Assembly (NCBI GenBank): GCA_005881895.1
Contig: VBCG01000009.1
Span: 25,993-76,572, forward strand
DNA from: Betaproteobacteria bacterium
GTDB taxonomy: Bacteria > Pseudomonadota > Gammaproteobacteria > Burkholderiales > Casimicrobiaceae
DNA: 50,580 nucleotides
Reading direction: 5' to 3'
Below are positions 2,581-43,016 of this stretch, in pieces (the first letter of the stretch is position 1; every line of letters starts with the position of its first letter). The notes beneath the pieces were generated by a model. That model searched no databases. It had not been told where the DNA came from and saw only the letters and a program-made list of their open reading frames with translations. A program made the translations under genes and the position numbers.

Positions 2581-2609
2581 CGCGTTTTCAAGCGATCTTT
2601 CGCTTCGGC

Positions 2610-6031: not shown

Positions 6032-6790
6032 TCATTTTGGCTCCGCTTCCTCGTCGAGCGCCTGCAGGTCCTGCACAACGCGGCGACTGAAGATGCGCCG
6101 CTCCTCGAGATAATGATCGAGCACCGAACGCATCAACCGCTTCGCTTCCGTCGCCGTTTGTGGATCCGGATAGCGTTCGTTCGCGAGCGCCAGCAGCGTT
6201 TCGCCGCGCACGAGCGGCCATCGTGCACCCGGCTCCGCGATATCCCGCCGCGGACCGCGATCGAAGGCGTAATGGTAGCGTCCCGCCGGATCGATCGGCG
6301 CGCCGGTGTCTTGTTCATGCGTTAGCGGCATTGCGTAACCCAATTCCGCCAACAATTTGAGCTCGAATCGGCGCAACGTTGCGGCCTGCTCTGCGGGTGC
6401 GGGATGTTCGGTCAACGCCAGTAGCGCGCTCTCGTATTCCGACCACAGCGCGGGGTGTGGATCCTCGCGCGGAACAAGCTTCAGCAACAGCTCGTTCAGA
6501 TAGAAGCCGCACAGGAGCGCAGCGCCGCGGGGTAACGGCATTCCGCCGCGCCACTCCGCGTCAAGCAACGTCTTCAGCTCGGCAGCGCCCGCCCACGACA
6601 ACAGCAGCGGTTGAAAGGCGTTCAGCAATCCGCGCATCTCCGAGCGCGGACGCTTCGCGCCGCGCGCGACCATCGCGACACGCCCATAGGCTCCGCTAAA
6701 CGCCTCGACGATGAGGCTCGTCTCCCGATAGGGATACGTGTGGAGAACGAATCCCGCCTGCCCTTCACGCCGGTCGCGCAGTTGCCTCAT
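6032..6790 (-). CDS. recO: DNA repair protein RecO
   Basis: A 252-residue RecO: N-terminal OB-fold ([38 protein letters not shown]) and a helical C-terminal domain ([33 protein letters not shown]). RecO loads RecA onto SSB-coated gaps with RecR. The zinc cysteines of some RecO proteins are absent, as is usual in proteobacteria. Its ATG overlaps the TGA of the upstream mini-ORF as ATGA, within the intergenic repeat described at 6791-6888, so its translation may depend on that leader. It lies in the era-recO-pdxJ order. Confidence 0.95.
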
Positions 6791-6888
6791 AGGACCCCCA
6801 CGCTTGCGGCCTCATTGGCCAATTCGGCCGCTGCGCTGCCCCCATAGGGAGAGTAATTCGCGCCTTGGGACGGCCCTGCGGCACTCAT
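6787..6888 (-). CDS. Candidate leader mini-ORF, 33 codons, within the dispersed repeat (copy A)
   Basis: An ATG at 6888, 19 bp after the era stop, opens a 33-codon frame beginning [14 protein letters not shown] and ending [14 protein letters not shown], whose TGA overlaps the recO start (ATGA). The same peptide, with in-frame length changes, occurs upstream of odhB at 24738-24851. No strong ribosome binding site precedes it. Either it is a translated coupling peptide for recO or the frame is a passenger of a structured repeat. Expression has not been shown; my support is the two-copy comparison. Confidence 0.45.
   Translation of the reverse strand: MSAAGPSQGANYSPYGGSAAAELANEAASVGVL
6791..6888 (-). 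repeat. Dispersed intergenic element, copy A (era-recO)
   Basis: Read on the minus strand the element runs from the mini-ORF ATG through GGGCCGTCCCAAGGCGCG, a CCC-TAT-GGG hairpin core, a GCGGCC/GGCCGC stem around GAATTGGCC, and ends in GCAAGCGTGGGGGTCC immediately before the recO start. It matches copies at 24742-24851 and 42933-43016 almost base for base over the conserved blocks. The element fills almost the whole era-recO gap. Confidence 0.85.
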
Positions 6889-6907
6889 CTCATCTAAGAT
6901 TCGACGC

Positions 6908-7804
6908 TCAATAGCCGAATCGCGTCAGTTGCGTCTCGTCGTTGGCCCATCCGCGTTTCACCTTCACCCATACCTCGAGGTAGACGGGACCGCCGAAGAC
7001 GCGTTCCATCTCGACCCGCGCTTGCGATGCGATGGCTTTCATTCGCGCACCGGCGGCGCCGACCAGAATGGCGCGTTGATTGGCCTTGTCAACGTAGACG
7101 GTGGCGTGAATCCGCCGCAGGTCGCCGCGCTCCTCGAAGCTTTCGATGGCGACGGTCGTTGCGTAAGGCACTTCTTCGCCCAACAGCCGGAAAATTTTTT
7201 CGCGGATCAATTCGGCCGCCAAAAAGCGCTCGTTGCGATCGGTCACATCCGATTCAGGATATAGCAATGGCGACAGTGGCAGCAGCTTCGTAATTTCGTC
7301 CTTGAGGTCGGTGAGCTGCATACCGCGCTCGGCGGAAATCGGCACGATCGCCGCGAAGTCGCGCAACAGAGCGATCTCGGACAGCATCGGCAACAGTACA
7401 GCCTTGTCCTTCAACTGATCGATCTTGTTGACTGCGACGATGACCGGAATGCCGGAAGGGAGCAATGCGGCGACTGCCCGATCAGCACTCGTCAGATGCC
7501 GCGCGTCGACAACCCAAACGACAACGTCGACGCCGCCTAGACTGTCCCGTACGGTGCGGTTCAGCCGATCGTTGAGCGCTCCGCGATTGCGCGTCTGGAA
7601 GCCGGGCGTATCGACGAACGCGAACTGCCGTTCAGGCTCGCTCAAAATTCCGGTGATGCGGTAGCGCGTCGTTTGCGGCTTTTTCGACGTGATGCTGATC
7701 TTTTCGCCGACGAGTGAATTGACGAGCGTCGATTTTCCGACTGACGGGCGCCCGACGATCGCGATGTGTCCTGCGCGATGCGTCGTCGCGGTGCGCTCAG
7801 CCAT
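6908..7804 (-). CDS. era: GTPase Era
   Basis: A 298-residue Era: G1 GRPSVGKS (18-25), effector region TSKKPQTTRYRI, G3 DTPGF, G4 NKID, then a C-terminal KH domain (VYLEVWVKVKRGWANDE). Era binds the 3' end of 16S rRNA and assists 30S assembly. The start MAERT at 7804 overlaps the rnc stop by 8 bp, the usual rnc-era arrangement, so the two are probably translationally coupled. An upstream extension of 25 residues in the same frame lies inside rnc and is rejected as the start. Confidence 0.96.
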   Translation of the reverse strand: MAERTATTHRAGHIAIVGRPSVGKSTLVNSLVGEKISITSKKPQTTRYRITGILSEPERQFAFVDTPGFQTRNRGALNDRLNRTVRDSLGGVDVVVWVVDARHLTSADRAVAALLPSGIPVIVAVNKIDQLKDKAVLLPMLSEIALLRDFAAIVPISAERGMQLTDLKDEITKLLPLSPLLYPESDVTDRNERFLAAELIREKIFRLLGEEVPYATTVAIESFEERGDLRRIHATVYVDKANQRAILVGAAGARMKAIASQARVEMERVFGGPVYLEVWVKVKRGWANDETQLTRFGY

Positions 7805-8471
7805 GTGCGCCGCTGGAAACGACGCGTGCGAACGCGGCGGCGGCGGCATTCTGCTCGGCAGCCCGTCGGCTCGTTCCACTGCCGCGCGTTGTCACTGCCA
7901 GAGCAGGGATCCGGCAGTCGACCTCGAATTGCTGCGCGTGCGCCTCGCCGGTCGTCGCGACGACCGCATATTCGGGCACCGGGTAACGGCGCGCCTGCAA
8001 CCATTCCTGCAAGCGCGTCTTCGGGTCCTTGCCGAGCGTTGCCGGGTCGGCGGCATGGAGCAGATCGGCGTAAATGCGGTCGATTGCGGCGCGTGCAGCC
8101 GGAAAGCCCCCGTCGAGAAACACTGCGCCCAGCACCGCTTCGAGCGCATCGGCGATGATCGACGGTCGATCGGCGCCCCCGCTCTTCACTTCGCCTTCGC
8201 CAAGCCGAATGTGTGCGCCCAACCCCATCTCCCGGGCGAGCTGCGCGAGCGTATCGCGGTTCACGAGGTTCGCGCGCGCGCGCGAAAGATCGCCTTCCTG
8301 CGTCGCCGGAAACCGCTCGAACAATGCCAGCGCGACGGCGCAATTCAGCACCGCGTCGCCGACGAACTCGAGTCGTTCGTTGTGAGGAACGCCGAAGCTG
8401 CGGTGCGTAAGGGCCTCGCGCAGGAGGCCGGGCTCGCGAAAGTCGTAACCGAGCCGTTCCGGCAATGTCAT
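7797..8471 (-). CDS. rnc: Ribonuclease III
   Basis: A 224-residue RNase III that cleaves double-stranded RNA in rRNA processing. The signature NERLEFVGDA is at 31-40, the second catalytic acidic cluster is in IIADALEAVLGAVFLDGG (D and E metal ligands), and the double-stranded RNA-binding domain follows (DPKTRLQEWLQARR, ending RRAAEQNAAAAAFARV). The gene lies 10 bp after the DUF4845 gene and overlaps era by 8 bp. Confidence 0.96.
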   Translation of the reverse strand: MTLPERLGYDFREPGLLREALTHRSFGVPHNERLEFVGDAVLNCAVALALFERFPATQEGDLSRARANLVNRDTLAQLAREMGLGAHIRLGEGEVKSGGADRPSIIADALEAVLGAVFLDGGFPAARAAIDRIYADLLHAADPATLGKDPKTRLQEWLQARRYPVPEYAVVATTGEAHAQQFEVDCRIPALAVTTRGSGTSRRAAEQNAAAAAFARVVSSGAHG

Positions 8472-8481
8472 TCAGCGATAA

Positions 8482-8835
8482 TCAGCGCGAGGCGGATGCG
8501 TCGAAATCCAGCAAGATGCTCGCGTTGCCGACCATCGGCAGTACGCGCTGCCATGAGGCCGTCGCCGTAATCGAACCACCCTGTCTCGACACCTGTATAT
8601 CGGCAGGGCGCACCGATTCGATGTATCCGGCTCCCGCCTTCCGATCGAATGCGCGGCGTACCTCACCAACGCTTCCGGTCGGTGCGTCGTCGAGCGCGGT
8701 TTTCAACGCTTTTTCCACGGCGAAGTACTCGATGTAAGCCGGAAGCACGCGAAATCCCACCAGCGCGACGACGATGACGACCGCGGCAACGAAAAGGAAT
8801 CCCAGGATCGTAATGCCGCGCTCGTTACGCATCAT
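8482..8835 (-). CDS. DUF4845 membrane-anchored protein
   Basis: A 117-residue protein with one N-terminal membrane segment (ILGFLFVAAVVIVVALVGF) and a small periplasmic domain. DUF4845 proteins are conserved between lepB and rnc in betaproteobacteria and their role is unknown; the N-terminus (RNERGITILGFLFV) resembles a type IV pilin-like anchor. AAGGGGAC lies just before the ATG at 8835, which I prefer to an upstream TTG at 8862 overlapping lepB. A second ATG directly follows at 8832. Confidence 0.88.
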   Translation of the reverse strand: MMRNERGITILGFLFVAAVVIVVALVGFRVLPAYIEYFAVEKALKTALDDAPTGSVGEVRRAFDRKAGAGYIESVRPADIQVSRQGGSITATASWQRVLPMVGNASILLDFDASASR

Positions 8836-8858
8836 TGGCCTGTCCCCTTGTGGTCCGC

Positions 8859-9788
8859 TCAACGAATGCCGCTTCCAACCCGCTTGAATGCGAGAGAAGC
8901 GATGTCGTCCCAGTTGAACCAGATGAAAAACGCCTTGCCGCGGATGTGGTCATCCGGCACGAAACCCCAATACCGGCTGTCGTCGCTATTGTCGCGATTG
9001 TCACCCATCATCAAGTATTGACCGGCAGGCACCCGGCACTTAAAACCGCGCTCATTGTAGTCGCAATTGTCGCGGCCAGGAAAATTGCGGACATTCGGCG
9101 GATAGACCGGCGGCGCTTGCGGGTTGATGCCGATCGTATGCTCCTGCGCGCCGGCGGCAATGTCGGTGCGCTCGAACGCGCGCTCGAGCGTATCGAAGCG
9201 AAGTCCTTCGAGATAACTGTAGGAGCCGTCGGCGCGCTGGGGCCACGGCTCTCCGTTGACCGTCAGGCGCTTGTCGCGGTATTCGACGACGTCGCCGCCG
9301 ACGCCGATCACGCGCTTGATGAAATCTTGCGTCGGATTGATCGGGTATCGGAACACGACGACATCGCCCCGCTTCGGGTCGCCCAACGGAATTATTTTCA
9401 TCTCGATGATCGGCAGGCGGATACCGTAGACAAATTTGTTGACGAGAATGAAATCGCCGACCTCGAGCGTGGGCCGCATCGACGACGACGGAATCTTGAA
9501 CGGCTCGGCCAGAAACGACCGCAGCAGAAACACGATCAACAAAACAGGAAAGAACGCCTTCGAGTATTCGACCCACGATGGCTCCCGCAAGGCAGCCGTT
9601 TCGACCTGTTCGCGCTGCGCGACGGCCGCCGCGGATTCGGTTGCCGGCACGGCCGCGCGTTGGCGGTCGAAATTCGCGATCGCCGCGCGTGCACGCTCGC
9701 GCCGGCGGCCTTCAAGGACAAGCTTGTCAACAAGCCAAGCGGCGCCTGTCACCGCAGTCAAGAGAAACAGAATCAGGGCAAAGTTCAT
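8859..9788 (-). CDS. lepB: Signal peptidase I
   Basis: A 309-residue type I leader peptidase with two N-terminal membrane segments (FALILFLLTAVTGAAWLV and FFPVLLIVFLLRSFLAEPF) around a cytoplasmic loop, then the periplasmic catalytic domain. The Ser-Lys dyad is visible: SSSMRPT (nucleophile about S103) and DFIKRVIGVGGD (about K158), with the later box MGDNRDNSDDSRYWG. It removes signal peptides from Sec and Tat substrates. The start is taken at the first ATG, 9788; a TTG two codons upstream is possible and no clear Shine-Dalgarno is seen. It is downstream of lepA. Confidence 0.95.
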   Translation of the reverse strand: MNFALILFLLTAVTGAAWLVDKLVLEGRRRERARAAIANFDRQRAAVPATESAAAVAQREQVETAALREPSWVEYSKAFFPVLLIVFLLRSFLAEPFKIPSSSMRPTLEVGDFILVNKFVYGIRLPIIEMKIIPLGDPKRGDVVVFRYPINPTQDFIKRVIGVGGDVVEYRDKRLTVNGEPWPQRADGSYSYLEGLRFDTLERAFERTDIAAGAQEHTIGINPQAPPVYPPNVRNFPGRDNCDYNERGFKCRVPAGQYLMMGDNRDNSDDSRYWGFVPDDHIRGKAFFIWFNWDDIASLAFKRVGSGIR

Positions 9789-9910
9789 CGGCAATGGGAA
9801 TGTTGTTCGTGTTGGATGGAGCCGAACGGGCTACCGCGAGCGCGCGGATTGTCGCACGCGCGGGGGTTCATTTCGCGCCGCCGGAACAAGGCGCGGGTGC
9901 AGCCTCTCTG

Positions 9911-9961
9911 GCGGCAGCGCAGCGGCCACATCGGGCACACCCGCCGCAAGCGTGGGGTTCA
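9911..9961 (+). repeat. Degenerate fragment of the dispersed element at the lepA 3' end
   Basis: The plus strand reads GGCGGCAGCGCAGCGGCC, 14 bp of unrelated sequence, then CCGCCGCAAGCGTGGGGTTC. These are the second half of the element found at 42933-43016, including its terminal GCAAGCGTGGGG block. Unlike other copies it faces away from the neighbouring start (lepB) and its end overlaps the lepA stop codon. The rest of the lepB-lepA gap (9789-9958) shows no gene. Confidence 0.6.
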
Positions 9962-11752
9962 CTTCCCGCCGACCTGGAGAATGGCGAGGAACGCCTCTTG
10001 CGGAATCTCGACGCTGCCGACCGCCTTCATTCGCTTCTTGCCCGCCTTCTGCTTCTCGAGCAGTTTCTTCTTCCGCGTCACGTCGCCGCCGTAGCATTTT
10101 GCCAATACGTTCTTGCGGAGCGCCTTGATCGTTTCACGCGCGATGATTTGGGCGCCGATCGACGCCTGGATCGCCACGTCGAACATCTGCCGCGGAATCA
10201 GCGAGCGCATTTTCGATGCGACTTCGCGTCCCCGATGGATCGACACCGAGCGATGCACCATCACCGAGAGCGCATCGACACGCTCGCCGTTGATCAGAAT
10301 ATCGAGCTTCACCACATCGGCCGCGCGGAACTCGCTGAATTCGTAATCGAACGACGCGTAGCCGCGCGACACCGACTTCATCCGGTCGAAAAAATCCATC
10401 ACGACTTCGGCCAGCGGCAGCTCGTAAGTCAGCATCACCTGGCGACCGAGATATTGCATATTCCTTTGAACGCCGCGTTTCTCGGTGCACAGCGTGATGA
10501 TGGGTCCGACGTGTTCCTGCGGCGTCAAGATCCTTGCCGTAATGACCGGCTCCCGGATCTCCTCCACTTTGGACAGGTCGGGCAGCTTGGACGGATTTTC
10601 TATCTCTTGAACGGTTCCATCGCGCAACAGCAGCTGATAGACGACCGTCGGCGCCGTCGTGATCAGATCCATGTCGTATTCGCGCTCGAGGCGTTCCTGC
10701 ACGATGTCCATGTGCAAAAGCCCGAGGAAGCCGCAGCGAAATCCGAAGCCCAGCGCCTGCGAAACTTCCGGCTCATAGCGCAGCGACGAGTCGTTCAACT
10801 TCAGCTTGTCGAGCGCGTTGCGCAGCGCCTCGTATTGGTTCGACTCGACGGGATAAAGGCCGGCAAAAACCTGCGGCTTCACTTCCTTGAAGCCCGGCAG
10901 CGGCGCCGCAGCAGGACGCGATGCATGCGTTACCGTGTCGCCGACTTGCGCAGCCTTCAATTCCTTGATGCCGGCCACAACGAAGCCGACGTCTCCGGCG
11001 GCAAGTGCGTCGCGGGCGGCCGACCGCGGCGTGAACACGCCGACTTGCTCGCACGTGTAAGGCGCCCCCGCGGCCATCAGCAATAGCTTGTCGCGCGGTT
11101 TGAGCATGCCGTCCATCACCCGAACCAGCATGACGACGCCGACGTAGTTGTCGAACCATGAATCGATGATCAAGGCGGTCAACGGCGCATTGGGGTTTCC
11201 TTCCGGCGGCGGAATACGCGCAATCACCGCCTCGAGAATGTCGTCGACGCCTTCGCCTGTTTTGGCGCTGGCCAGGATCGCGTCGTGCGCGTGGATACCG
11301 ATGATGTCCTCGATTTCGCTCATGACGCGATCGGGATCAGCGGATGGCAGATCGATCTTGTTTAGTACCGGCACGACAGTAACGCCCTGTTCGGTCGCGG
11401 TGTAGCAATTGGCTACGGTCTGCGCCTCGACGCCCTGCGACGCGTCGACGACAAGCAGCGCACCCTCGCACGCGGCAAGCGAGCGCGACACTTCATACGC
11501 AAAGTCGACGTGGCCGGGCGTGTCGATTAGATGCAACTGATAGAGCTCCCCGTTGCGCGCCGTGTATGTCAGCGCCGCGGTTTGAGCCTTGATCGTGATG
11601 CCACGCTCGCGCTCGAGGTCCATCGTATCCAGCACCTGCTCGCTCATCTCCCGGTCCGAAAGCCCTCCACAGCGCTGGATGAAGCGGTCGGCCAGCGTCG
11701 ACTTGCCGTGGTCGATGTGCGCGATGATGGAAAAGTTGCGGACGTTCTGCAT
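9959..11752 (-). CDS. lepA: Elongation factor 4 (LepA)
   Basis: A 597-residue translational GTPase of the expected length. G1 is [15 protein letters not shown] near the N-terminus, the switch region has [11 protein letters not shown]3 is DTPGHVDF, G4 [10 protein letters not shown], and the LepA-specific C-terminal domain ends with [25 protein letters not shown]. LepA acts on the ribosome in initiation and back-translocation and helps under ionic stress. Upstream of lepB as in most proteobacteria, with an unusually long gap of about 170 bp to lepB holding a repeat fragment. Confidence 0.97.
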
Positions 11753-11896
11753 GGGAAATGCGGTCTTCGCCTCTGCGCGCGAGGCCGGCAGTGGGCGCGG
11801 GGGACTTGCGGTCGATCGCGTCGGTGCCCCGGGAAAAGCTTTGAATTTTAGCGGAAAAGCGTCGCTAACGCGAACAAACGACGCTCCGTTTGCCTC

Positions 11897-12169
11897 TCAG
11901 GCGTCCGTTGCCTGCCTGGCCAGGGAGCGATGAACCGCAGCACTATCGAGCGTGTAATGGCAAAGCTCGACGCCCTCCGCGGGCGAACCCAGAAACAGCA
12001 CGGGGATGCGTTCGCCGTAACGCTCTTCCAGCGCTGCATCGGCGTCGACATCCAGTTCAACGACGCTCGCGTTGAAGCGAGCCGCAAGCGGCGCAACGGC
12101 AATGCGCATCTCGTCGCACAGGTGGCAATAGGCGCGTATCAGCAGCGTCAGAACGGGAGGTGGGTGCAT
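11897..12169 (-). CDS. Glutaredoxin family (DUF836-type) thiol-disulfide protein
   Basis: A 90-residue thioredoxin-fold protein with the dithiol motif in LIRAYCHLCDEMRIA (CHLC, residues 15-18) and the cis-proline segment ERIPVLFLG. The glutaredoxin-like DUF836 family is regularly found beside mucD and lepA in betaproteobacteria; its substrate is not known. The ATG at 12169 has no strong ribosome binding site. It lies 144 bp upstream of lepA on the same strand, and that gap shows nothing else I can support. Confidence 0.88.
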   Translation of the reverse strand: MHPPPVLTLLIRAYCHLCDEMRIAVAPLAARFNASVVELDVDADAALEERYGERIPVLFLGSPAEGVELCHYTLDSAAVHRSLARQATDA

Positions 12170-12285
12170 CGTCGCGTTGTAAGCCGTTTACCGACGCGGT
12201 TTGCAGCGAATCCGCTGAATGCCCATCATAGCGTCGCGCTAGCTCCGCCAAGCGCTTCCAACAATGCTCATTGCAGGAGGCTCAC

Positions 12286-12672
12286 ATGTTGAAAAACATC
12301 GCCATCGCATTCGGCATCGTGTTCATCATCGTCGGAATTCTGGGGTTCGTCTCCGCTGTAACGCCCAATGGTCTGCTCCTTGGCTACTTCGAAGTCAATC
12401 CCGCGCACAACGTCGTGCATCTCGCGACCGGTGTGGTCGCGCTCATCGTCGCCTTTGCAAGCGAAAAGGCCATGCGTCTTTTCTTTCAGATCTTCGGCGT
12501 GATCTACGCGCTGGTTGCATTGATGGGTTTCTTCATGGGCAATCAGCCGCTGCTCGGTATCGTCGCGATCAACGCGGCCGACAATTGGCTGCACGTACTG
12601 ATTGCGATCGTCGCGCTGTATCTCGGCTTTGGCATGAAGGCGGCCGAGCCGGCGGCAGCCACGACGACGTAA
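12286..12672 (+). CDS. DUF4383 membrane protein
   Basis: A 128-residue inner-membrane protein with four predicted membrane segments: IAIAFGIVFIIVGILGFVSA, VVHLATGVVALIVAFA, FFQIFGVIYALVALMGFFMG and WLHVLIAIVALYLGFGM. The HNVVHLATG motif and layout fit the DUF4383 family, whose role is unknown. The ATG at 12286 follows CAGGAGG with good spacing. It is the only plus-strand gene within this minus-strand cluster, inserted between mucD and the glutaredoxin gene, so it is probably a later insertion. Confidence 0.8.
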   Translation: MLKNIAIAFGIVFIIVGILGFVSAVTPNGLLLGYFEVNPAHNVVHLATGVVALIVAFASEKAMRLFFQIFGVIYALVALMGFFMGNQPLLGIVAINAADNWLHVLIAIVALYLGFGMKAAEPAAATTT

Positions 12673-12683
12673 GGTCAGTCGGC

Positions 12684-12711
12684 ATGGGCGGCGTCCAAGG
12701 ACGGCGCCCAT
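12684..12711. terminator. Hairpin between convergent DUF4383 and mucD genes
   Basis: ATGGGCGGCGT and ACGGCGCCCAT form an 11-bp stem with one mismatch and a six-base loop. It lies 12 bp after the DUF4383 stop and in front of the convergent mucD end. There is no T-tract, so it may be a 3'-end stabilising hairpin and not a true intrinsic terminator. Confidence 0.4.
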
Positions 12712-12729
12712 GTCGGTCGGTCGCCTCCT

Positions 12730-12760
12730 ATTCGCGCCGCGGGGCCGCTCCCAGGCGCGA
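12730..12760 (+). repeat. Fragment (first half) of the dispersed element
   Basis: ATTCGCGCCGCGGGGCCGCTCCCAGGCGCGA corresponds, with two single-base differences or insertions, to the opening block of the element at 42933 (ATTCGCGCCGC, GGGCCG, TCCCAAGGCGCGA). The second half is missing. It ends close to the mucD stop codon (12767). Confidence 0.55.
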
Positions 12761-12766
12761 GCCCAA

Positions 12767-14212: not shown

Positions 14213-14285
14213 GGCGATGCTTTCCTGATGGAAGGAGACGAACACGACCTTCATTGTCCCACGCCGCCGCGCGGGGGCACACCCT

Positions 14286-15230: not shown

Positions 15231-15237
15231 TAGAAAA

Positions 15238-15438
15238 GGACCCCCACGCTTGCGGCCCGGACGCGAGTAGCCGGCGAGGGGCCCCGCGCAGCGGGGATCG
15301 ACGGCGACGCGAGTCGGCATGTGAGGCCGACGGCTGGAGGCATCGATTCGACGCAACGGCCCAAGGAGGCCAAGGCGCCGCTGCGCTGCCCCCGTGGGGC
15401 AAGCAATTGGCGCCTTAGGGCGGCCTGGCGGCCCCAAT
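15238..15438 (-). repeat. Expanded copy of the dispersed element between rseA and mucB
   Basis: Minus-strand ends match the other copies: AGGCCGCCCTAAGGCGCC with a CCCC-AC-GGGG hairpin and GGGGGCAGCGCAGCGGC at one side, GGGCCGCAAGCGTGGGGGTCC-like sequence at the other, against the mucB start. About 90 bp of unrelated sequence is inserted between the halves. It fills the 251-bp gap separating rseA from mucB, genes that normally lie a few bases apart. Confidence 0.75.
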
Positions 15439-15481
15439 AGAAGGAGCGAAGGAAGACGGGTGGGATGCATCGTGGGCGCTG

Positions 15482-16575: not shown

Positions 16576-16704
16576 TAAGCGGGTAGTCCCTGAAACAATG
16601 TTGTTGTTATGCCCGCCGAACGGAGGGCGCGGCAACCAGCGTCGAACTCACACAACGGATGGCGACATCCGTCGCAGAAAACCTCGCGGCGCACGCTTCT
16701 CGCA

Positions 16705-16731
16705 ACAGACCAACGGACGGTAGCTAAGTTC
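16705..16731 (-). promoter_or_regulatory. Candidate sigma-E promoter for rpoE
   Basis: On the minus strand GAACTT (16731-16726) is followed after exactly 16 bases by TCTGT (16709-16705). The RpoE consensus is GAACTT, 16-17 bases, TCTGA, so only one base differs. It reads toward rpoE, leaving a leader of about 125 bases. This is the expected autoregulatory site. The rest of the 16576-16768 gap holds no gene. Confidence 0.65.
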
Positions 16732-16768
16732 ACGCAGAGATGACGTTATTCATCGTGGACATCGACGA

Positions 16769-17797: not shown

Positions 17798-17835
17798 CGA
17801 CAAAGAGCGCGATAAAACGATTATTATCGCCGATC

Positions 17836-17908
17836 GGGGTCAGAGACGATTTTTCTCCGCTGAATCGCTCGTATTGTCGTCAAGGTCAGAAAAGTCGTCT
17901 CTCACCCC
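17836..17908. repeat. REP-type inverted repeat between prpE and the asparaginase gene
   Basis: GGGGTCAGAGACGATTTTTC (17836-17855) pairs with GAAAAGTCGTCTCTCACCCC (17889-17908): 20-bp arms, two mismatches, 33-base spacer. The core GGGTCAGA..CGATTTT is the same as in the perfect repeat at 29430-29516, so both belong to one family of dispersed palindromes. It could act as a 3'-end hairpin for prpE, whose stop is at 17918. Confidence 0.75.
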
Positions 17909-17917
17909 ACTTCGGTC

Positions 17918-19813
17918 TTACGTTCGCAACGCCGCCTTGATCTGCTCGAGCGCTGCCGGATCCTCGATCGTCGTCAAGTCGCCCGGATCGCGCCCCTCGG
18001 CAAGTGCCTGAATCGAGCGGCGCAACAGCTTGCCGGAGCGCGTTTTCGGCAGCAGCGTCACGAAATGGACCTGGCCGGGACGCGCGATCGCGCCCAACTC
18101 GCGGTCGACCGTATCGAGCACTTCGCGACGCATCGTCGCCGCACCTTCCGGCGACGCGACGCGCGTTGGATCTTTGACGACCGCGAAGGCGACGGGAATC
18201 TGTCCTTTGAGCGGATCGGCAACGCCGACGACGGCCACCTCCGCAATGCCGGCGTGCGCCTGCACCGCTTCTTCGATTTCGCGCGTGCCCAACCGATGGC
18301 CGGCGACGTTGATCACATCGTCGGTGCGGCCGAGCACGAAGTAATAGCCGTCGGCATCGCGCGTCGCCCAATCGAACGTCGAATACGCGAGCCGGCCGGG
18401 AACGGTCGAGAAATACGTATCGACAAAACGCTGGTCGTCACCCCATACGGTCGTCATGCAGCCAGGCGGAAGCGGCGGCGTGATTGTCAGCACACCCTTC
18501 TCGCCAGTGCCGACCTCCTCGCCCGTCGCCTCGTGCAACAGCTTCACGTCGTAGCCGTACACCGGAAACGAAGGCGAGCCGAACTTGCGGGGCGTGTCCT
18601 CGATGCCCGGCTGCGCGGAGAGGATCGGCCATCCGCTCTCGGTCTGCCAGTAGTGGTCGACAATTGCGACGCCGAGCGAATCGCTCGCCCAACGGGCCGT
18701 CGGTTCGTCCAGCGGCTCGCCGGCCAGAAACAGGTACTTGAGACGCGACAGATCGTGCTTCTTCATGTACGCCGGATCCTGCTTTTTCAAGACACGAATC
18801 GCCGTTGGGGAACTAAACATCGTCTTGACGTTGTTCTCCTCGACGATCTTCCACCAGATTGCTGGGTCGGGTCGGATGGGGAGGCCTTCGTACATGATCG
18901 TCGTTGAACCGTTGATCAGCGGCGCGTAGATGATGTACGAGTGGCCGACGACCCAGCCGATGTCGCTCGTCGTGAACATCGTTTCGCCGGGCTCGACGCA
19001 GAAGATGCGGCGCATCGACGACGCCAGCGCAACCGCATAACCGCCGGTATCGCGTTGCACGCCTTTCGGCTTGCCGGTGGTTCCCGACGTGTAAAGAATG
19101 TACGAAGGCGCGGAGGATTCGAGCCATTCGCACGGTACGCGCGCGTTCGTCTGTTCGGCGCGTAGCGTTGCGTAGTCCAGGTCGCGGCCGGGCGTTCGCG
19201 GCATCGCGTTGTCGAGATGGCGATCGACGATGATGACGGCGCTCGGCGGATGACGGGCAATCCGGAGCGCTTCGTCGACAAGCGGCTTATAGTGAATCGG
19301 CTTGCCGCCGCGCATGCCCGCGTCGGACGTGAAGAGAACCTTCGGCTTCGCGTCGTCGATGCGCGTTGCGAGCGACGCCGCGGCGAATCCGCCGAATACC
19401 ACCGAATGGATGGCGCCGATGCGCACGCACGCCAGCATCGCGAACGCCGCTTCGGGAATCATCGGCATGTAGATCAATACGCGATCGCCGCAGCCGACAC
19501 CTTGCGCACGCAGGACCGCCGCGCAACGATTCACTTCGGCATGGAGCTCGGCGTAGGTGTAGCGCGCGCTCGTATCGGTTTCGGTCGAGAGGAAATGCAG
19601 CGCCAGCTGGTCGCTGCGCGTCGCCAGGTGGCGGTCGACCGCGTTGTGGCACAGATTCGTTCGTCCGCCGACAAACCAATGGGCGAACGGCGGTTTAGCG
19701 TAATCGAGGACTTCGTCGAACGGCGTTTGCCAGTCGATCAGCGCCGCCTCTTCGCGCCAGAAGTCTGCGCGGTCGGCGAGCGAACGTCGGTGAAAGTCGC
19801 GATAGCTGGACAT
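17918..19813 (-). CDS. prpE: Propionate--CoA ligase PrpE
   Basis: A 631-residue acyl-CoA synthetase of the acetyl/propionyl-CoA class. It has the ACS N-terminal domain (YRDFHRRSLADRADFWREEA), the AMP-binding signature YTSGTTGKPKGVQRD, and the C-terminal acylation-regulated lysine region LLPKTRSGKLLRRSI. The ending DLTTIEDPAALEQIK and the length are typical of PrpE and differ from Acs. It activates propionate to propionyl-CoA. Six bases separate it from acuI on the same strand, and prpBCD lie about 16 kb away. Confidence 0.88.
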   Translation of the reverse strand: MSSYRDFHRRSLADRADFWREEAALIDWQTPFDEVLDYAKPPFAHWFVGGRTNLCHNAVDRHLATRSDQLALHFLSTETDTSARYTYAELHAEVNRCAAVLRAQGVGCGDRVLIYMPMIPEAAFAMLACVRIGAIHSVVFGGFAAASLATRIDDAKPKVLFTSDAGMRGGKPIHYKPLVDEALRIARHPPSAVIIVDRHLDNAMPRTPGRDLDYATLRAEQTNARVPCEWLESSAPSYILYTSGTTGKPKGVQRDTGGYAVALASSMRRIFCVEPGETMFTTSDIGWVVGHSYIIYAPLINGSTTIMYEGLPIRPDPAIWWKIVEENNVKTMFSSPTAIRVLKKQDPAYMKKHDLSRLKYLFLAGEPLDEPTARWASDSLGVAIVDHYWQTESGWPILSAQPGIEDTPRKFGSPSFPVYGYDVKLLHEATGEEVGTGEKGVLTITPPLPPGCMTTVWGDDQRFVDTYFSTVPGRLAYSTFDWATRDADGYYFVLGRTDDVINVAGHRLGTREIEEAVQAHAGIAEVAVVGVADPLKGQIPVAFAVVKDPTRVASPEGAATMRREVLDTVDRELGAIARPGQVHFVTLLPKTRSGKLLRRSIQALAEGRDPGDLTTIEDPAALEQIKAALRT

Positions 19814-19819
19814 TGATTC

Positions 19820-20824
19820 TCAAGGGTGCGAGTCGGCGCCGATACGGACGACGGTTCGACCGCGCACCGTGCCTTTGATGTACGAATCGAAATGCGTCGG
19901 CAACTCGTCGAAGTCAATTGTGAGCACCTGGTCATGCACCCGGTCCGGCCGCCATTCGACGGCGAGCTTGTTCCACAGCGTCTGACGAAGCGACATCGGG
20001 CAGTTCACGCTGTCGACGCCGAGCAACTGGACCCCGCGGAGGATGAAGGGCGCGACCGTCGTTGTCAGCTTCATGTCGGCGGCGAGTCCGACCGATGCGA
20101 CGGTGCCGGCGATCTGCATCGTCGACAAAAGCCACGCGAGCATGTCGCCGCCCAAGTTGTCGATCGCGCCCGCCCACGTTGCCTTATCGAGTGGCCGAAT
20201 GTGCGAGAAGTCGAGCGATTGACGCAGCACGACCTCTTTCGCGCCGATGCTTTTCAGGTACTCCGCCTCGCGTTGCTTGCCGGTAATCGCAACGACGTGA
20301 TAGCCCTTTTTCGCCAGTATCTCGATCGCAACCGATCCCACGCCGCCGGTTGCGCCGCTCACGGCGACGCGGCCATTGTCCGGTTTGAGGCCGCTGTTCT
20401 CCATCAGATGGATCGCCAGCGCTGCGGTGAAACCCGCGGTGCCTAACGTCATCGCATCGAAGGCCGTCATGCTCTCAGGGCGACGAACGATCCAATCGCC
20501 GGGGACGCGCGCGAGCTCGGCATAGCCACCGTCGTGCGCAACGCCCATGTCGTAGCCGGTCACGATCACCTTGTCGCCTCGCCGCCAGCGCGGATCGTTC
20601 GAGCGCTCGACCGTGCCCGCCACGTCGATTCCGGCCACGGTCGGATACTTCCGCATGATCTTGCCGGCGCCGTTGTACGAGAGTGCGTCTTTGTAGTTGA
20701 TCGTCGAGTACTTGGTCCGGATGACGACGTCGCCCGGATCGAGCTCGTCGATGGTCATGTCGACGAACCGGCTTTGCACGACCTTGTCTTGTTCGAACGT
20801 GCGATACGCCTTGAATGTCTGCAC
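19820..20824 (-). CDS. acuI: Acrylyl-CoA reductase AcuI (YhdH/YhfP family)
   Basis: A 334-residue zinc-independent medium-chain reductase. Family landmarks: FKAYRTFEQDKVVQSRF, TKYSTINYKDALSYNGAGKI, GIDVAGTVERS, and the NADPH-binding AVSGATGGVGSVAIEILAK. AcuI reduces toxic acrylyl-CoA to propionyl-CoA. The GTG at 20824 follows GAGGAGACACCC, a good ribosome binding site; 81 further in-frame upstream codons overlap zapE and are rejected. Adjacency to prpE suggests both feed propionyl-CoA into the methylcitrate cycle. Confidence 0.87.
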   Translation of the reverse strand: MQTFKAYRTFEQDKVVQSRFVDMTIDELDPGDVVIRTKYSTINYKDALSYNGAGKIMRKYPTVAGIDVAGTVERSNDPRWRRGDKVIVTGYDMGVAHDGGYAELARVPGDWIVRRPESMTAFDAMTLGTAGFTAALAIHLMENSGLKPDNGRVAVSGATGGVGSVAIEILAKKGYHVVAITGKQREAEYLKSIGAKEVVLRQSLDFSHIRPLDKATWAGAIDNLGGDMLAWLLSTMQIAGTVASVGLAADMKLTTTVAPFILRGVQLLGVDSVNCPMSLRQTLWNKLAVEWRPDRVHDQVLTIDFDELPTHFDSYIKGTVRGRTVVRIGADSHP

Positions 20825-20859
20825 GGGTGTCTCCTCGGAAGATATCGTTCTAATCGTAA

Positions 20860-22017
20860 TCAGGCGCGAACCGCCGCCGGCTGCTTTCGGGTGTCGTGCA
20901 AGGTGTGCGGCAGCGCCATGTAGTCGCGCGTGCGCATTTCGACGAGCCGGCTCACGGTGCGTGGAAAATCCTGGGCGTTGGGCCCCTCCGCATGGAGCTC
21001 TTCCGCGGGCGCCTCGGCGGATGCAAGCAACTTCACGCGGTGATCGTACAGGATGTCGATGAGCCACGTGAAGCGGCGCGCCTCATCGGACGTCGCCGAC
21101 GACAGGCGGGGAATATCCGATATCAAGATCACCGCGAATCGCTGCGCCAGCTCGAGATAGTCGCGTTGCGAGCGCGGCCCGCCGCAAAGCGTTGCGAAAT
21201 CGAACCATGCGACGCTTCCCGCGCGGCGCTTCGCCATCAGCGTGCGCCGGTCAACCGCGATTCGGAGATCCTCGTCCGGCCCGGTCGCCATTGCATCGAA
21301 CGCGCGTTTAAGCGCCGCCTCCGATACCGGGCCCGCAGGCGTATGGTAGATCGGCATGTGCGTTAGCGCACGCAGGCGATAGTCGACGCCGGCGTCGATC
21401 TCCATCACGTCGAGCCATTGCTCGAGCAACGCGATCGCAGGCAGAAAGCGCTCGCGCTGCAGGCCGTCAGGCCAAAGTCGATCGGGCCGGTAATTCGACG
21501 TCATCACGAACACGACGCCGGCGGCGAACAGCGCCGCCAGCAATCGGCCGAGGATCATCGCATCGGCGATATCGCTTACGTGAAACTCGTCGAAGCAGAT
21601 CAAGCGCCATCGTGCGGCGATCCGTGCGGCGACGGCCGTCAGCGGATCGGTATCGCGGTTGAGCGTTGCCAGCTCCGCGTGCACGTCGCGCATGAACGCG
21701 TGGAAATGGACGCGCGTTTTGCGCCGTATTCTGACGCTCGCGCAGAAGCTGTCCATCAGGAACGTTTTTCCGCGGCCGACGCCGCCCCATAGATATACGC
21801 CGCGCGGAACGTCGGGCGGTGCGAACAAACGGCGCAGCGCGGACTTGCGGGCACTGCGAAACGCGGTCAGCTCGTCGGCAAGCTGCTGGAGTCGATCCAA
21901 CGCCGCGGCTTGCGCGTGGTCGAGCGTGGACTTCCGCCGGGCGAGCTCCGGCTCGAGGTATTCGATGAGCGCGCCGCGGCGGCGCGCAATCTGCCCGGGA
22001 TAATCGGCCTCCGCCAT
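20860..22017 (-). CDS. zapE: Cell division protein ZapE (AFG1-like ATPase)
   Basis: A 385-residue P-loop ATPase. Walker A is GGVGRGKT (78-85), Walker B LICFDEFHVSDIADAMIL, and the sensor region TSNYRPDRLWPDGLQRERF is typical of ZapE/AFG1. ZapE interacts with FtsZ in E. coli and is needed under low-oxygen or heat conditions. The C-terminus is slightly extended (HDTRKQPAAVRA). It is 9 bp after lpdA, the common position after odhA-odhB-lpdA in betaproteobacteria. Confidence 0.95.
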   Translation of the reverse strand: MAEADYPGQIARRRGALIEYLEPELARRKSTLDHAQAAALDRLQQLADELTAFRSARKSALRRLFAPPDVPRGVYLWGGVGRGKTFLMDSFCASVRIRRKTRVHFHAFMRDVHAELATLNRDTDPLTAVAARIAARWRLICFDEFHVSDIADAMILGRLLAALFAAGVVFVMTSNYRPDRLWPDGLQRERFLPAIALLEQWLDVMEIDAGVDYRLRALTHMPIYHTPAGPVSEAALKRAFDAMATGPDEDLRIAVDRRTLMAKRRAGSVAWFDFATLCGGPRSQRDYLELAQRFAVILISDIPRLSSATSDEARRFTWLIDILYDHRVKLLASAEAPAEELHAEGPNAQDFPRTVSRLVEMRTRDYMALPHTLHDTRKQPAAVRA

Positions 22018-22026
22018 CCGCGACAG

Positions 22027-23454
22027 CTAGATATTAATGGTGCGCTTGTCGACGCCGAGCGCCGCTTCGCGCGTCGCTTCGGAGAGCGACGGATGCGCAT
22101 GGCAGATCCGCGCAATATCTTCGCTCGACGCGCCGAACTCCATCGCGACGACGCCTTCAGCGATGAGCTCAGAGGCGAAGGGTCCGATCACATGCAAGCC
22201 GAGGATGCGATCGGTCTTCGCGTCCGCGAGCATCTTGACGAATCCCGTTGTGTCGCCCATCGCACGCGCGCGGCCGTTGGCCAGGAAGGGAAACGTGCCG
22301 GCGCGATAAGCGACCCCCGCAGCCTTCAACTGCTGTTCGTTCTGGCCGACCCAGGCGATCTCGGGCGATGTGTAGATGACCCACGGCGTCGTATTGAAAT
22401 CGACATGGCCGTGTTGTCCCGCAATGCGCTCGGCAACGGCCACGGCCTCGTCTTCGGCCTTGTGCGCAAGCATCGGTCCGCGGACGACGTCGCCGATGGC
22501 CCAGACGTTCGGAAGATTCGTTTTGCAGTCACCGTCGACCGCAATAAACCCGCGTTCGTCCAGCGCGAGACCAACCGCCTGCGCATTGAGCCCGTCTGTA
22601 TGCGGCACGCGGCCGATCGAAACGATCAGTCGTTCGAGCGCTACCTTCGCGGCGGCACCCGCTGCATCCGTGTAATCGACATCGACGCCATCCTTTTTGA
22701 CGGTGACCCGCGTAATCGTTACTCCAGTACGAATGTCGAGACCTTGCTTCTTGAATGCCTTCAGCGCTTCCTTGGCGATCGCTTCATCGGCGACGCCGAG
22801 AAAGGTCGGTAACGCTTCGAGCACCGTGACTTCCGATCCGAGCCGGCGCCAGACGCTTCCCATCTCGAGGCCAATCACACCCGCGCCGACGACGCCGAGT
22901 TTCTTCGGAACCTCTGGAATCGCCAACGCGCCTTCGTTGTCGAGCACGCGGTCGTTGTCGATCGCAACGCCGGGTAGCGCGCGCGGCTTCGATCCGGTCG
23001 CGACGATCACGTGCTTGGCCGTGATCTCGGCGGCGCTCGGACCTTCGACGTTGATCTTCCACGCGTCGCCATCCTTGCCGGCAAACGAGCCGCGGCCATG
23101 CAGAAACGTGATCTTGTTTTTCTTGAACAGATACAGGATGCCGTCGTTGTTCTGGCCGACGACCTTGTCCTTGCGCGCCAGCATCTTTGCGACGTCGATC
23201 GCAACGTCCTTGATCAAGATGCCGTGATCACCGAACGTGTGTTGCGCGTGCTCGAAGTTTTCCGAAGACTGCAAGAGCGCCTTCGACGGAATGCAGCCGA
23301 CGTTCGTGCAGGTGCCGCCCGGCGCGGGCTTGCCACCCGCGCGCGACCAGTCATCGATGCACGCGGTCTTGAAACCGAGCTGCGCGGCTCGGATAGCCGC
23401 GGTATAGCCGCCGGGACCGGCGCCGATCACGACGATATCGAATGGCTCAGCCAT
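22027..23454 (-). CDS. lpdA: Dihydrolipoyl dehydrogenase (E3)
   Basis: A 475-residue flavoprotein disulfide reductase. FAD-binding [10 protein letters not shown] (11-20), redox disulfide [15 protein letters not shown] (C49, C54), NAD-binding [11 protein letters not shown], and the C-terminal His-Glu pair in [14 protein letters not shown]. It reoxidises the lipoyl groups of the 2-oxoglutarate dehydrogenase complex encoded just upstream. The ATG at 23454 comes three bases after the odhB stop, so coupling is likely. Confidence 0.97.
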
Positions 23455-23457
23455 TGC

Positions 23458-24741
23458 TCACAGATCGAGCAGTAGACGGGCAGGGTCTTCGAGCGCTTCC
23501 TTGATCGCGACGAGCGACAGCACTGCTTCGCGTCCGTCGATGATGCGATGGTCGTACGACTGCGCGAGATAATTCATCGGCCGGATGACGATCTGCCCGT
23601 TCTCGACGACCGCGCGTTCCTTGGTCGCATGCACGCCGAGGATCGCCGACTGCGGCGGGTTGATGATCGGCGTCGACAGCATCGAGCCGAACACGCCGCC
23701 ATTGGAAATCGTGTACGTGCCGCCGGTCAATTCCTCGACCGTCAGCTTGCCTTCGGTCGCGCGTTTGCCGAAGTCGCCGATCTGCTTCTCGATGTCGGCG
23801 ATCGACATCTGATCGGCGTCCCGCACGATCGGGACGACCAGTCCACGCGGGCTTCCGACCGCAATGCCGATATCGAAATAGCCGTGATAGACGATGTCGC
23901 TACCGTCGATCGACGCGTTCAATGCCGGAAACTTCTTGAGCGCATGCACGGCCGCCTTGACGAAAAAGCCCATGAAGCCGAGCTTGACGCCATGCTCTTT
24001 TTCGAAGCGCTCCTTGTATTTGTTCCGAAGCTCGATGATCGGCTGCATGTTAACTTCGTTGAACGTCGTCAGAATCGCGGCGGTCGATTGCGATTGCACG
24101 AGACGTTCGGCAACGCGCTGTCGCAAGCGCGACATGGGCACACGCTGCTCGGGACGCGAACCGAGCGCGGCCGGTAACGAAACGGGAGGCGCGGAAGGTT
24201 TGGCGCTCGGTGCGGGCGGTTGCGTGGACGGTGCTGCAGGTTTTGCGGCAGGGGCAGCGGGTGCCACCTTGGCCTCGACGGCCGCAACGTCCTCTTTGGT
24301 GATGCGACCGCCGCGTCCCGTGCCCGTGACGGTCGTTGCGTCGACGCCCTTGTCGGCCATCATCTTGCGCGCCGCCGGCATTGCCGTTGCGGCCTCGGCG
24401 GCCTTTGCCGGTTCCGGGGCCGTGTGGAGAGCGTGGGGCGTCGGAGCTGGCTGCACCGGCGTCTGGGCGGGGGCTTTCGCGGCGGCCGATTGCGCGCCTT
24501 TGGCGTCGGTATCGATCACGCCGATCACGTCGTTCGACGTAACGGTCGCGCCATCTTCGCGCGTGATCTCGATCAGCACGCCATCGTTCGGCGCGGGCAA
24601 CTCGAGCACCACCTTGTCGGTTTCGACGTCGATCAAATTCTCGTCGCGCTTGACGGGTTCGCCGGGCTTCTTATGCCAGTTGACGAGTGTCGCTTCGGTG
24701 ACCGACTCCGGCAGCTGCGGCACTTTGACTTCGATTCTCAT
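23458..24741 (-). CDS. odhB: Dihydrolipoyllysine succinyltransferase (E2 of 2-oxoglutarate dehydrogenase)
   Basis: A 427-residue E2 with one lipoyl domain (lipoyl lysine K43 in [13 protein letters not shown]), an Ala/Pro-rich linker, the E3-binding domain ([30 protein letters not shown]), a second Ala/Pro linker, and the catalytic domain ([12 protein letters not shown], ending [16 protein letters not shown] with the active-site His). It transfers succinyl to CoA. The start ATG overlaps the TGA of the leader mini-ORF (ATGA) inside the repeat at 24742-24851, an arrangement it shares with recO. Confidence 0.96.
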
Positions 24742-24851
24742 TGTTGGACCCCCACGCTTGCGGCCTCATTGGCCAATTCGGCCGCTACGCTTTGCCCTCC
24801 GCCCCCGAAGGGGGAGTAATTCGCGCCTTGGGACGGCCCGTCGGCACTCAT
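24738..24851 (-). CDS. Candidate leader mini-ORF, 37 codons, within the dispersed repeat (copy B)
   Basis: An ATG at 24851, 27 bp after the odhA stop, opens a 37-codon frame beginning [14 protein letters not shown] and ending [15 protein letters not shown]. Its TGA overlaps the odhB ATG (ATGA). Compared with copy A, one nine-base and one three-base insertion, a synonymous change and two amino acid changes are seen, and the frame is kept. A weak AAAGCGA precedes the start. It may couple odhA and odhB translation; no peptide evidence is available. Confidence 0.5.
24742..24851 (-). repeat. Dispersed intergenic element, copy B (odhA-odhB)
   Basis: Minus-strand sequence shares with copy A the blocks GGGCCGTCCCAAGGCGCG, AATTACTC, a stronger hairpin core (CCCCC-TTC-GGGGG), GCGGCCGAATTGGCC and GCAAGCGTGGGGGTCC. 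It fills the odhA-odhB gap, which in relatives is usually short. Orientation places GTGGGGGTCC seven bases from the odhB start. Confidence 0.88.
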
Positions 24852-42932: not shown

Positions 42933-43016
42933 ATTCGCGCCGCAGGGCCGTCCCAAGGCGCGAATTACTCCCCCTCGGGGGGCAGCGCAGCGGCGAAGCC
43001 GCAAGCGTGGGGGTCC
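42933..43016 (+). repeat. Dispersed intergenic element, copy C (acnA-DMT transporter)
   Basis: Plus-strand sequence has GGGCCGTCCCAAGGCGCG, AATTACTC, a CCCCC-TC-GGGGG hairpin core, a GCGGC-GAA-GCCGC hairpin and GCAAGCGTGGGGGTCC. The start codon seen in copies A and B is ATT here and a 13-base deletion shifts the frame, so this copy has no complete mini-ORF. The frame of the following transporter runs back into it. Confidence 0.87.

What the first reader, a model, noticed from the sequence alone, without database searches (positions are those of the whole stretch)
6787..24851. A mini-ORF inside a dispersed repeat is translationally joined to recO and odhB
Two distant intergenic copies (6787-6888 and 24738-24851) each hold a complete small frame (33 and 37 codons) starting MSA(A/D)[10 protein letters not shown] and ending [13 protein letters not shown]. 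Each stop overlaps the next gene's start as ATGA. The copies differ by insertions of nine and three bases, one synonymous change and two amino acid changes, so reading frame is kept although sequence and length vary. The genes downstream are unrelated (DNA repair, TCA cycle). A mobile or amplified sequence that brings its own coupled leader peptide would be an unusual way to keep operon translation going after insertion. I know the general sequence type recurs in Burkholderiales intergenic regions; I know of no described function.
Basis: partly seen in the sequence, partly recalled or inferred. Interest (0 to 1): 0.78.

Follow-up and report, generated by a model that had tools for sequence, protein, structure and literature searches.

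The report
Frame-keeping repeat at operon gene junctions
A short hairpin-rich DNA repeat, scattered through a soil bacterium's genome, often sits exactly where one gene stops and the next begins and there usually keeps the protein-making reading frame unbroken across itself, which suggests how selfish DNA can enter operons without breaking them.

Summary
The two window copies (recO, odhB) belong to a structured repeat of mostly 75-105 nt. Its 3' tail matches 145 places in this 4.29 Mb MAG (reversed-pattern control 6), with many copies in three congeners. In stretches of four genomes, 124 of 175 full copies begin xTGA. In 45 of 69 with a co-directional upstream gene that TGA is the gene's stop codon. 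Of 59 non-tandem xTGA copies with one usable co-directional downstream gene, the frame from the element's start ends on the next gene's NTGA start in 28 and fuses in frame in 18. Where an NTGA start lies within 25 nt, 25 of 29 are in coupling phase, through nine different unit lengths against four off-phase ones; elsewhere 19 of 30 are in fusion phase. The G-rich tail is a predicted strong Shine-Dalgarno (mean -8.6 vs -3.8 kcal/mol). The peptide looks incidental: codon-position diversity is flat and stems co-vary. Best reading: a REP/MITE-like repeat that lands at stop/start junctions, where survivors keep translation continuous. The mobilising enzyme is unknown; no translation was measured.

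The parts
6787..6888 (-). mini-ORF over the recO copy; TGA overlaps recO ATG (ATGA 6787-6790)
6794..6888 (-). repeat copy between era and recO (hmm 1-90)
6794..6801 (-). GTGGGGGT tail, predicted Shine-Dalgarno for recO
   Evidence: duplex energies over 49 coupled copies
24738..24851 (-). mini-ORF over the odhB copy; TGA overlaps odhB ATG (ATGA 24738-24741)
24748..24851 (-). repeat copy between sucA and odhB; no copy seen there, by eye, in 16 of 16 genus relatives readable for at least 100 nt upstream of odhB
24748..24755 (-). GTGGGGGT tail, predicted Shine-Dalgarno for odhB
42933..43014 (+). third copy, ATTC type with perfect 9-bp first hairpin, after the aconitase gene; its tail supplies a possible GTG start for the EamA gene (43007)
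15240..15436 (-). degenerate composite copy (short element with a second repeat module inside it) at the start of rseB/mucB, in an open frame with rseB
6032..6790 (-). recO
   Evidence: Pfam RecO_N/RecO_C
23458..24741 (-). odhB (2-oxoglutarate dehydrogenase E2)
   Evidence: Pfam 2-oxoacid_dh

Best explanation
The copies are insertions of a short palindromic repeat (hairpins H1-H3 and a GUGGGGGU tail) placed directly after an xTGA at a gene junction, typically the stop codon of the upstream gene and in some cases also the former start of the downstream gene (ATGA overlap). After insertion a start codon at the left edge (with whatever ribosome site precedes it) begins a frame across the repeat. 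Surviving insertions are mostly those in which a ribosome either runs on in frame into the downstream gene (N-terminal extension) or terminates on an NTGA that is the downstream start, where the tail is a strong Shine-Dalgarno and restarts it. SHOWN by sequence: repeat family, hairpins with compensatory changes, position on the upstream stop, phase of the frame, NTGA coupling, predicted SD strength, empty sites. INFERRED: that the left xTGA is host sequence, that the mini-ORF is translated, that reinitiation happens, that phase is held by selection, and that the repeat moves as DNA by an unidentified enzyme.
For: Family: 102 nhmmer hits in 664 kb of own genome, 98 used; 117 distinct in 359 kb of three congeners. 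Upstream: element TGA = upstream stop in 45 of 69 xTGA copies vs 0 of 11 others; background 4-nt overlaps 49 of 351 gene pairs in the own genome, 2 of 72 in congener loci. Phase: of 59 non-tandem xTGA copies with exactly one qualifying downstream gene, phase 2/0/1 = 31/21/7; with an NTGA start within 25 nt, 25 of 29 in coupling phase (p 6e-9); without one, 19 of 30 in fusion phase (p 7e-4); unit lengths 80,83,86,89,92,95,98,104,110 in phase, 97,99,100,108 (one copy each) off phase. Of 36 phase-2 copies 31 couple by NTGA; background NTGA starts 36%, p 8e-10. SD: 49 coupled mini-ORF ends -8.6 vs 731 background genes -3.8 kcal/mol, p 3e-20. Structure: 11 of 22 pairs with two-sided changes, 0 of 500 shuffles as high. 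Empty sites: a 4-nt NTGA overlap in the relative's intact junction in 5 of 11 xTGA junctions judged by eye.
Against: Copies are related, so counts are not independent; only per-junction phase and distinct unit lengths speak to this. In 6 of the 11 judged junctions, both window copies among them, the relative has a gap or another overlap, so an ATGA overlap is not always the starting state; two further junctions (L178, L201) were ambiguous and not counted. Left and right x agree in only 27 of 38 non-tandem coupled copies, so a plain target duplication is not shown; a general TSD test in the own genome was weak. Two outer H1 pairs are not standard pairs in 46 and 47 of 66 aligned copies. Distinct body lengths alone show no three-base preference. 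Genes were called with a home-made hexamer finder. Left out of the phase count: 23 tandem copies and 42 without a usable downstream gene, of 124. No transcription, translation or transposition data.
Confidence: 0.6

Rival explanations
1. Phase is a by-product. The repeat has a few inherited lengths and lands at ATGA overlaps, with ATGA restored at its right end, so the mini-ORF is in phase automatically. The downstream gene is served by the Shine-Dalgarno tail alone and the mini-ORF is irrelevant.
For: xTGA and non-xTGA copies share lineage length differences and similar modal-frame fractions, 31 of 45 ATGA and 12 of 18 ATTC in the own genome; the tail alone is a strong predicted SD.
Against: Nine different in-phase unit lengths against four off phase; copies lacking a nearby NTGA start are preferentially in the other tolerated phase, fusion (19 of 30); two coupled copies have an 81-nt body with a 9-nt linker, a compensated combination.
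Confidence: 0.22
2. A functional leader peptide: the mini-ORF encodes a conserved small peptide that acts in cis or trans.
For: Similar peptides in many copies; a weak excess of synonymous changes in xTGA copies (observed over expected S/N 1.29, 1.14, 1.08, 1.60) versus the two other classes large enough (0.90, 0.76).
Against: Third-position diversity is not raised (.149 vs .109/.157, p 0.33), and non-xTGA copies look the same (.139 vs .117/.169); amino acids in the H3 loop vary (T, I, K, L, P, R, S and a stop in G000) although the third base there is mostly A; arms change as base pairs; 11 of 110 short xTGA copies have an in-frame stop.
Confidence: 0.07
3. A cis-acting RNA (mRNA stabiliser, attenuator or SD-sequestering switch: CCCCC can pair either with the H2 GGGGG or with the tail GGGGG) whose frame is kept only as a side condition.
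For: RNAalifold pairs CCC (columns 39-41) with the tail (106-108), an alternative to H2.
Against: Copies occur in either orientation and in convergent or divergent gaps (98 copies of the own genome: 34 same, 19 opposite, 13 convergent, 10 divergent, 20 called inside a gene, 2 at a contig edge); no Rfam match.
Confidence: 0.1
4. Chance resemblance or assembly artefact.
For: The genome is a fragmented MAG (260 contigs).
Against: Same element and geometry in three other genomes and relatives in other families; reversed-pattern controls low (6 vs 145; 0-3 per genome; 0).
Confidence: 0.01

Closest known systems
REP sequences / REPINs (GTAG-tagged palindromes, RAYT-associated)
   Same: Short, high-copy, mostly intergenic palindromes close to gene ends; GTAG REP termini often provide the TAG stop to flanking ORFs, and some REPs lie at ORF N termini (PMC3733652, passages read)
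   Different: Longer (mostly 75-105 nt, three hairpins); the stop supplied is a TGA overlapping a start codon; phase is kept between two genes; no element found beside the Y1 transposase genes tested; GTAG before H3 in only about half of the aligned copies
Rickettsia palindromic elements (RPE)
   Same: Palindromic repeats tolerated in frame in proteins (PMC10969869, passages read); like the fused class here
   Different: RPEs sit inside ORFs; here copies sit at stop/start junctions, and a coupled class with its own SD-like tail exists
IS200/IS605 ends (IS608, ISDra2)
   Same: Cleavage sites are chosen by pairing with an element tetranucleotide, the guide (PMC8266576, passages read); here the first four bases co-vary with an internal tetranucleotide
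   Different: No transposase identified; here the internal tetranucleotide is the 3' side of a 9-bp stem; cleavage never tested
ATGA stop/start translational coupling (termination-reinitiation)
   Same: Same ATGA/GTGA overlap geometry (recalled knowledge)
   Different: Here there is a mini-ORF inside a repeat between upstream stop and downstream start, often with such an overlap at each end

Membership tests
REP (GTAG-tagged) | conserved GTAG directly 5' of the palindrome | tested here: not met
   before H3 the second tag base is T in 32, C in 33 and A in 1 of 66 aligned copies; none before H1 in that alignment
REP (RAYT-associated) | a Y1 tyrosine transposase flanked by the repeats | tested here: not met
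   14 Y1_Tnp matches in 10 of 22 genus genomes, no element in any of the 14 fetched loci (about 3.3 kb in the one whose length I printed); no Y1_Tnp match in G020 or G013, both rich in copies though 66% and 84% complete
MITE | terminal inverted repeats shared with an IS | tested here: not met
   the two ends (xTGAGCGCC and GTGGGGGTCCA) are not inverted repeats of each other (by eye); no search for a parent IS was made
MITE | target site duplication | tested here: inconclusive
   87 copies: own-pair matches of 6 or more nt 14 vs 4.9 shuffled, but tandem arrays supply several; xTGA class alone 7 vs 3.75, within the shuffles; left and right x agree in 27 of 38 non-tandem coupled copies
Rickettsia palindromic element | in-frame insertion within ORFs | tested here: inconclusive
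   18 of 59 are in-frame N-terminal fusions, but at junctions; no sequence comparison with RPEs was made
IS200/IS605-type ssDNA element | host tetranucleotide matched by an element tetranucleotide | tested here: inconclusive
   35 perfect matches of 186 vs 19 when shuffled within genome; x vs last guide base Fisher 1.7e-5 pooled (single genomes p 0.03-0.11); flanking positions at chance (46 of 186 each). A plain stem would give the same signal, and the host origin of the four bases is inferred
IS200/IS605-type ssDNA element | TnpA-catalysed ssDNA cleavage | not testable with these tools
   needs biochemistry
conserved coding sORF | codon-position bias / purifying selection on amino acids | tested here: not met
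   flat codon positions in G000, only a weak synonymous excess in the four genomes
known RNA family | match to an Rfam model | tested here: not met
   window, gathering scores; six loci with long forms, E up to 1

The most novel reading that the evidence does not exclude
A mobile repeat that finds stop/start overlaps by pairing an internal guide with the host tetranucleotide (ATGA, GTGA), inserts there, and rebuilds translational coupling with a built-in in-phase spacer ORF and a strong Shine-Dalgarno: an operon-compatible insertion element.
Probability: 0.28. Interest if true: 0.82.

Novelty: new variant of a known kind. Interest (0 to 1): 0.62.

Why it matters
Operons with overlapping genes leave little room for insertions, yet this repeat lies in many gene junctions. 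If phase and SD are what let it stay, it shows how selfish DNA can spread inside translationally coupled operons, would explain some spurious-looking N-terminal extensions and mini-ORFs in annotations, and gives a natural experiment (many insertions, nine in-phase unit lengths) on how coupling is tolerated.

Tried and rejected
Conserved peptide: rejected as main cause. General target-site duplication: weak, partly from tandem arrays. RAYT as mobiliser: no element in the loci of 14 Y1_Tnp matches. Rfam: none. Plasmids: one partial hit, Rhodoferax antarcticus; phages: none. A 15-nt exact-tail scan of viral contigs gave 13 stretches, fetched but not examined. A strict order-wide pattern found only the own genome, 1 of 300 (that sample held no other genome of the genus); a DNA query found 11 of 300 including the own genome, and none of the 8 other genomes of the family in that sample. 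Literature: searches (mobile or palindromic repeats with stop codon, start overlap, coupling, RAYT/REPIN, guide terms; 0, 2, 1, 16, 62, 1 and 9 papers) showed no title or abstract start describing this arrangement in the rows listed; I read passages of four papers only; most subscription papers are not held. Rows dropped: 4 of 102 nhmmer hits under 24 bits; partial copies (98 to 87 in G000); in the phase test 23 tandem copies and 42 without a usable gene of 124; ten G000 copies of the short-loop subfamily. The printed output was cut, so junctions were judged from its visible part and from the filtered (35 pairs).
Full report
OBSERVATION. The two frames are where the finding says: minus strand, 33 and 37 codons, each TGA sharing ATGA with the start of recO or odhB. 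Pfam confirms era/recO and sucA/odhB. The window holds a third copy (42933-43014 +) and a degenerate composite copy at the start of rseB (about 15240-15436 -). In the whole own genome (4.29 Mb MAG, 260 contigs) the tail GCCGCAAGCGTGGGGGTC matches 145 times at up to 3 mismatches, reversed-pattern control 6. At 2 mismatches, 61 genomes (own and 60 relatives) range from 0 to 108 matches, reversed control 0-3 each; G000 has 108, G020 70, G013 35, G002 30; within the genus G004, G006 and G014 have none.

ANATOMY. From 60 stretches of G000 merged with the window and earlier loci (664 kb) nhmmer gave 102 hits; 98 at 24 bits or more were used. An alignment of 66 copies shows: H1, nine-base arms around GCNGGGCCGTCCCAA; H2, CCCCC-loop-GGGGG; H3, GCGGC-loop-GCCGC with loop GNA, GNNA or a longer arm; and the tail GCGTGGGGGTC. 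Counting pairs: 90.2% of cells paired (shuffled 88.5%), 11 of 22 pairs with two-sided changes (shuffled 2.6), 0 of 500 shuffles as high, slid registers lower; two outer H1 pairs are non-standard in 46 and 47 of 66 copies, mainly those of the xTGA type. RNAalifold offers an alternative pairing of the C run with the tail.

TWO CLASSES. In G000, 87 full copies: 45 begin ATGA and 18 ATTC; the rest are mixed. Over four genomes 124 of 175 begin xTGA. In non-xTGA copies H1 is often a perfect nine-base palindrome with varying arms. In relatives from other families, 4 of 11 hits have nine complementary bases with unrelated arm sequences, 3 are nearly so, and 4 pair only in the inner part (by eye). The first four bases co-vary with the internal four: perfect pairs 35 of 186 against a shuffled mean of 19 within genome (G013 alone not significant, p 0.15); the x of xTGA against its partner, Fisher p 1.7e-5 pooled, 0.03-0.11 in single genomes; the next two positions outward are at chance, 46 of 186 each. 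In G002 the partner is mostly TCAT or TCAC opposite ATGA or GTGA; in G000 and G020 it is most often GAAT, leaving a tandem G-A mismatch against ATGA. Two readings fit: a guide that pairs with the host target, or a plain stem kept or corrected as a palindrome.

POSITION. Among copies with a co-directional upstream gene, the element's own TGA is that gene's stop in 45 of 69 xTGA copies and 0 of 11 others. Background four-base overlaps: 49 of 351 neighbouring pairs in G000, 2 of 72 in the congener loci. For odhB no copy is seen in 16 of 16 genus genomes with at least 100 nt readable upstream (one of them, L218, holds another insert; five of the 21 other genomes had less or no upstream sequence). 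Of 11 xTGA junctions that I judged by eye against a relative without the copy, 5 show a four-base NTGA overlap in the relative (for example a kdsB-like and a bioD-like junction; these names are recalled from the sequences, not from a call) and 6 show a gap or another overlap, both window copies among the six; two more (L178, L201) were ambiguous. Three insertions are shared by G000 and G020 at orthologous sites (C66/L189, C148/L255 and, of ATTC type, C26/L250); the G000 copy at C66 has a stop in its frame.

PHASE. With a strict gene definition (co-directional gene starting less than 40 nt beyond the element), 65 xTGA copies have phase 2 (coupling), 0 (fusion), 1 (neither) = 36, 23, 6. The genomes differ: G020 14 coupled and 2 fused of 17, G013 6 fused and 1 coupled of 8, G002 2 coupled of 3. 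With a looser definition that does not favour fused genes, and tandem copies left out, 59 copies give 31, 21, 7; 28 coupled and 18 fused. Split by the downstream gene: with an NTGA start within 25 nt, 25 of 29 are in phase 2; without one, 19 of 30 are in phase 0. Distances from left xTGA to right NTGA: 80, 83, 86, 89, 92, 95, 98, 104, 110 in phase; 97, 99, 100, 108 off phase, one copy each. Body lengths alone do not show this: distinct lengths in both classes take all three residues. So phase is a property of the junction, which argues for selection on translation rather than a fixed-length founder, though relatedness of copies keeps this short of proof.

LONG FORMS. A second repeat module of roughly 100-150 nt sits in the H1 loop, in the H3 region, or in place of H1-H2. 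At least four such copies (C217, C218 near 15.9 kb, C39 near 63.6 kb, L195) still read open and end on the next NTGA: two by script (C39, L195) and two by my own reading of the sequences. Others do not, for example the C242 copy near 14.9 kb, which stops inside.

SHINE-DALGARNO. Predicted pairing of the 17 nt upstream of the start with ACCUCCUUU (anti-SD recalled, not read from this genome): mean -8.6 kcal/mol for 49 element-coupled mini-ORF ends (11 of them before a tandem copy) against -3.8 for 731 other genes and -4.0 for 55 genes at four-base overlaps.

PEPTIDE. Diversity by codon position in G000: xTGA .109/.157/.149, others .117/.169/.139. Observed over expected S/N: 1.29, 1.14, 1.08, 1.60 in the xTGA classes of the four genomes; 0.90 and 0.76 in the two other classes large enough. 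In-frame stops: 11 of 110 short xTGA copies (8 of 48, 2 of 28, 1 of 20, 0 of 14). There is at most weak constraint on amino acids.

MECHANISM. I commit to the following. The left xTGA is host sequence (inferred); a start codon there begins the mini-ORF; ribosomes either run on into the next gene or stop on its start and restart with the help of the tail. The hairpins serve the element, not the host. What mobilises it is unknown: Y1 (RAYT-like) matches occur in 10 of 22 genus genomes, none with the element in its fetched locus, and none was found in G020 or G013.

KNOWN KINDS. GTAG REPs can give TAG stops and lie at N termini of ORFs (PMC3733652, passages); Rickettsia palindromic elements are in-frame insertions (PMC10969869, passages); IS200/IS605 guides select cleavage sites by pairing (PMC8266576, passages); the REPIN paper (PMC3116915) has no occurrence of the stop- or start-codon terms I looked for. 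The junction-placed, phase-keeping arrangement with an SD-like tail is what differs; the searches named in Tried and rejected did not show it.

LIMITS. Home-made gene calls; MAGs; related copies; stretches were chosen because they carry tail matches; no expression data.

Noticed in passing
window 15240-15436 (-): Composite copy: a second repeat family (module with GCCGTCGATCCCCGC ... CCCTCGCCGGCT) lies inside a degenerate short element at the start of rseB, in an open frame with it.
   Followed up: partly
L335, L338 (own genome C162, C226): The second repeat module also occurs without a recognisable short element nearby, so it is probably a dispersed family of its own that merges with it.
   Followed up: no
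L358-L367: In other families of the order 4 of 11 hits (in L360, L361, L366, L367) have H1 arms unrelated in sequence yet fully complementary over nine bases (for example GGTTTCGCC/GGCGAAACC, GTCAGCGTC/GACGCTGAC) around a nearly constant loop; 4 others do not pair in the outer part.
   Followed up: partly
L122 about 177-258 and L292 about 1273: The same junction seems to carry the element in opposite orientations in G000 (C166) and G013, which suggests two separate insertions.
   Followed up: no
L064 about 2500-3000: The era-recO gap of a related named MAG holds a different inverted-repeat-rich insert of a few hundred bases with a 25-nt piece resembling H1.
   Followed up: no
L202, L291, L282, L298 (G013): Some G013 copies carry an extra insert of about 55-60 nt in H3; the two scored for phase (L291 near 2487, L282; bodies 141 and 138 nt) still read as in-frame fusions.
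   Followed up: partly
L123, L167, L158, L191, L200, L277: Tandem arrays with a period of roughly 82-98 nt.
   Followed up: partly
H3 loop, alignment A1: Short H3 loops are mostly GNA (mainly non-xTGA copies of G000) or GNNA-like (mainly xTGA copies of G000), a shape known (from recall) to make stable DNA hairpins; the one-base difference also changes the phase.
   Followed up: partly
viral contigs L228-L240: 13 IMG/VR stretches hold the exact 15-nt tail; not checked whether they carry the whole element.
   Followed up: no
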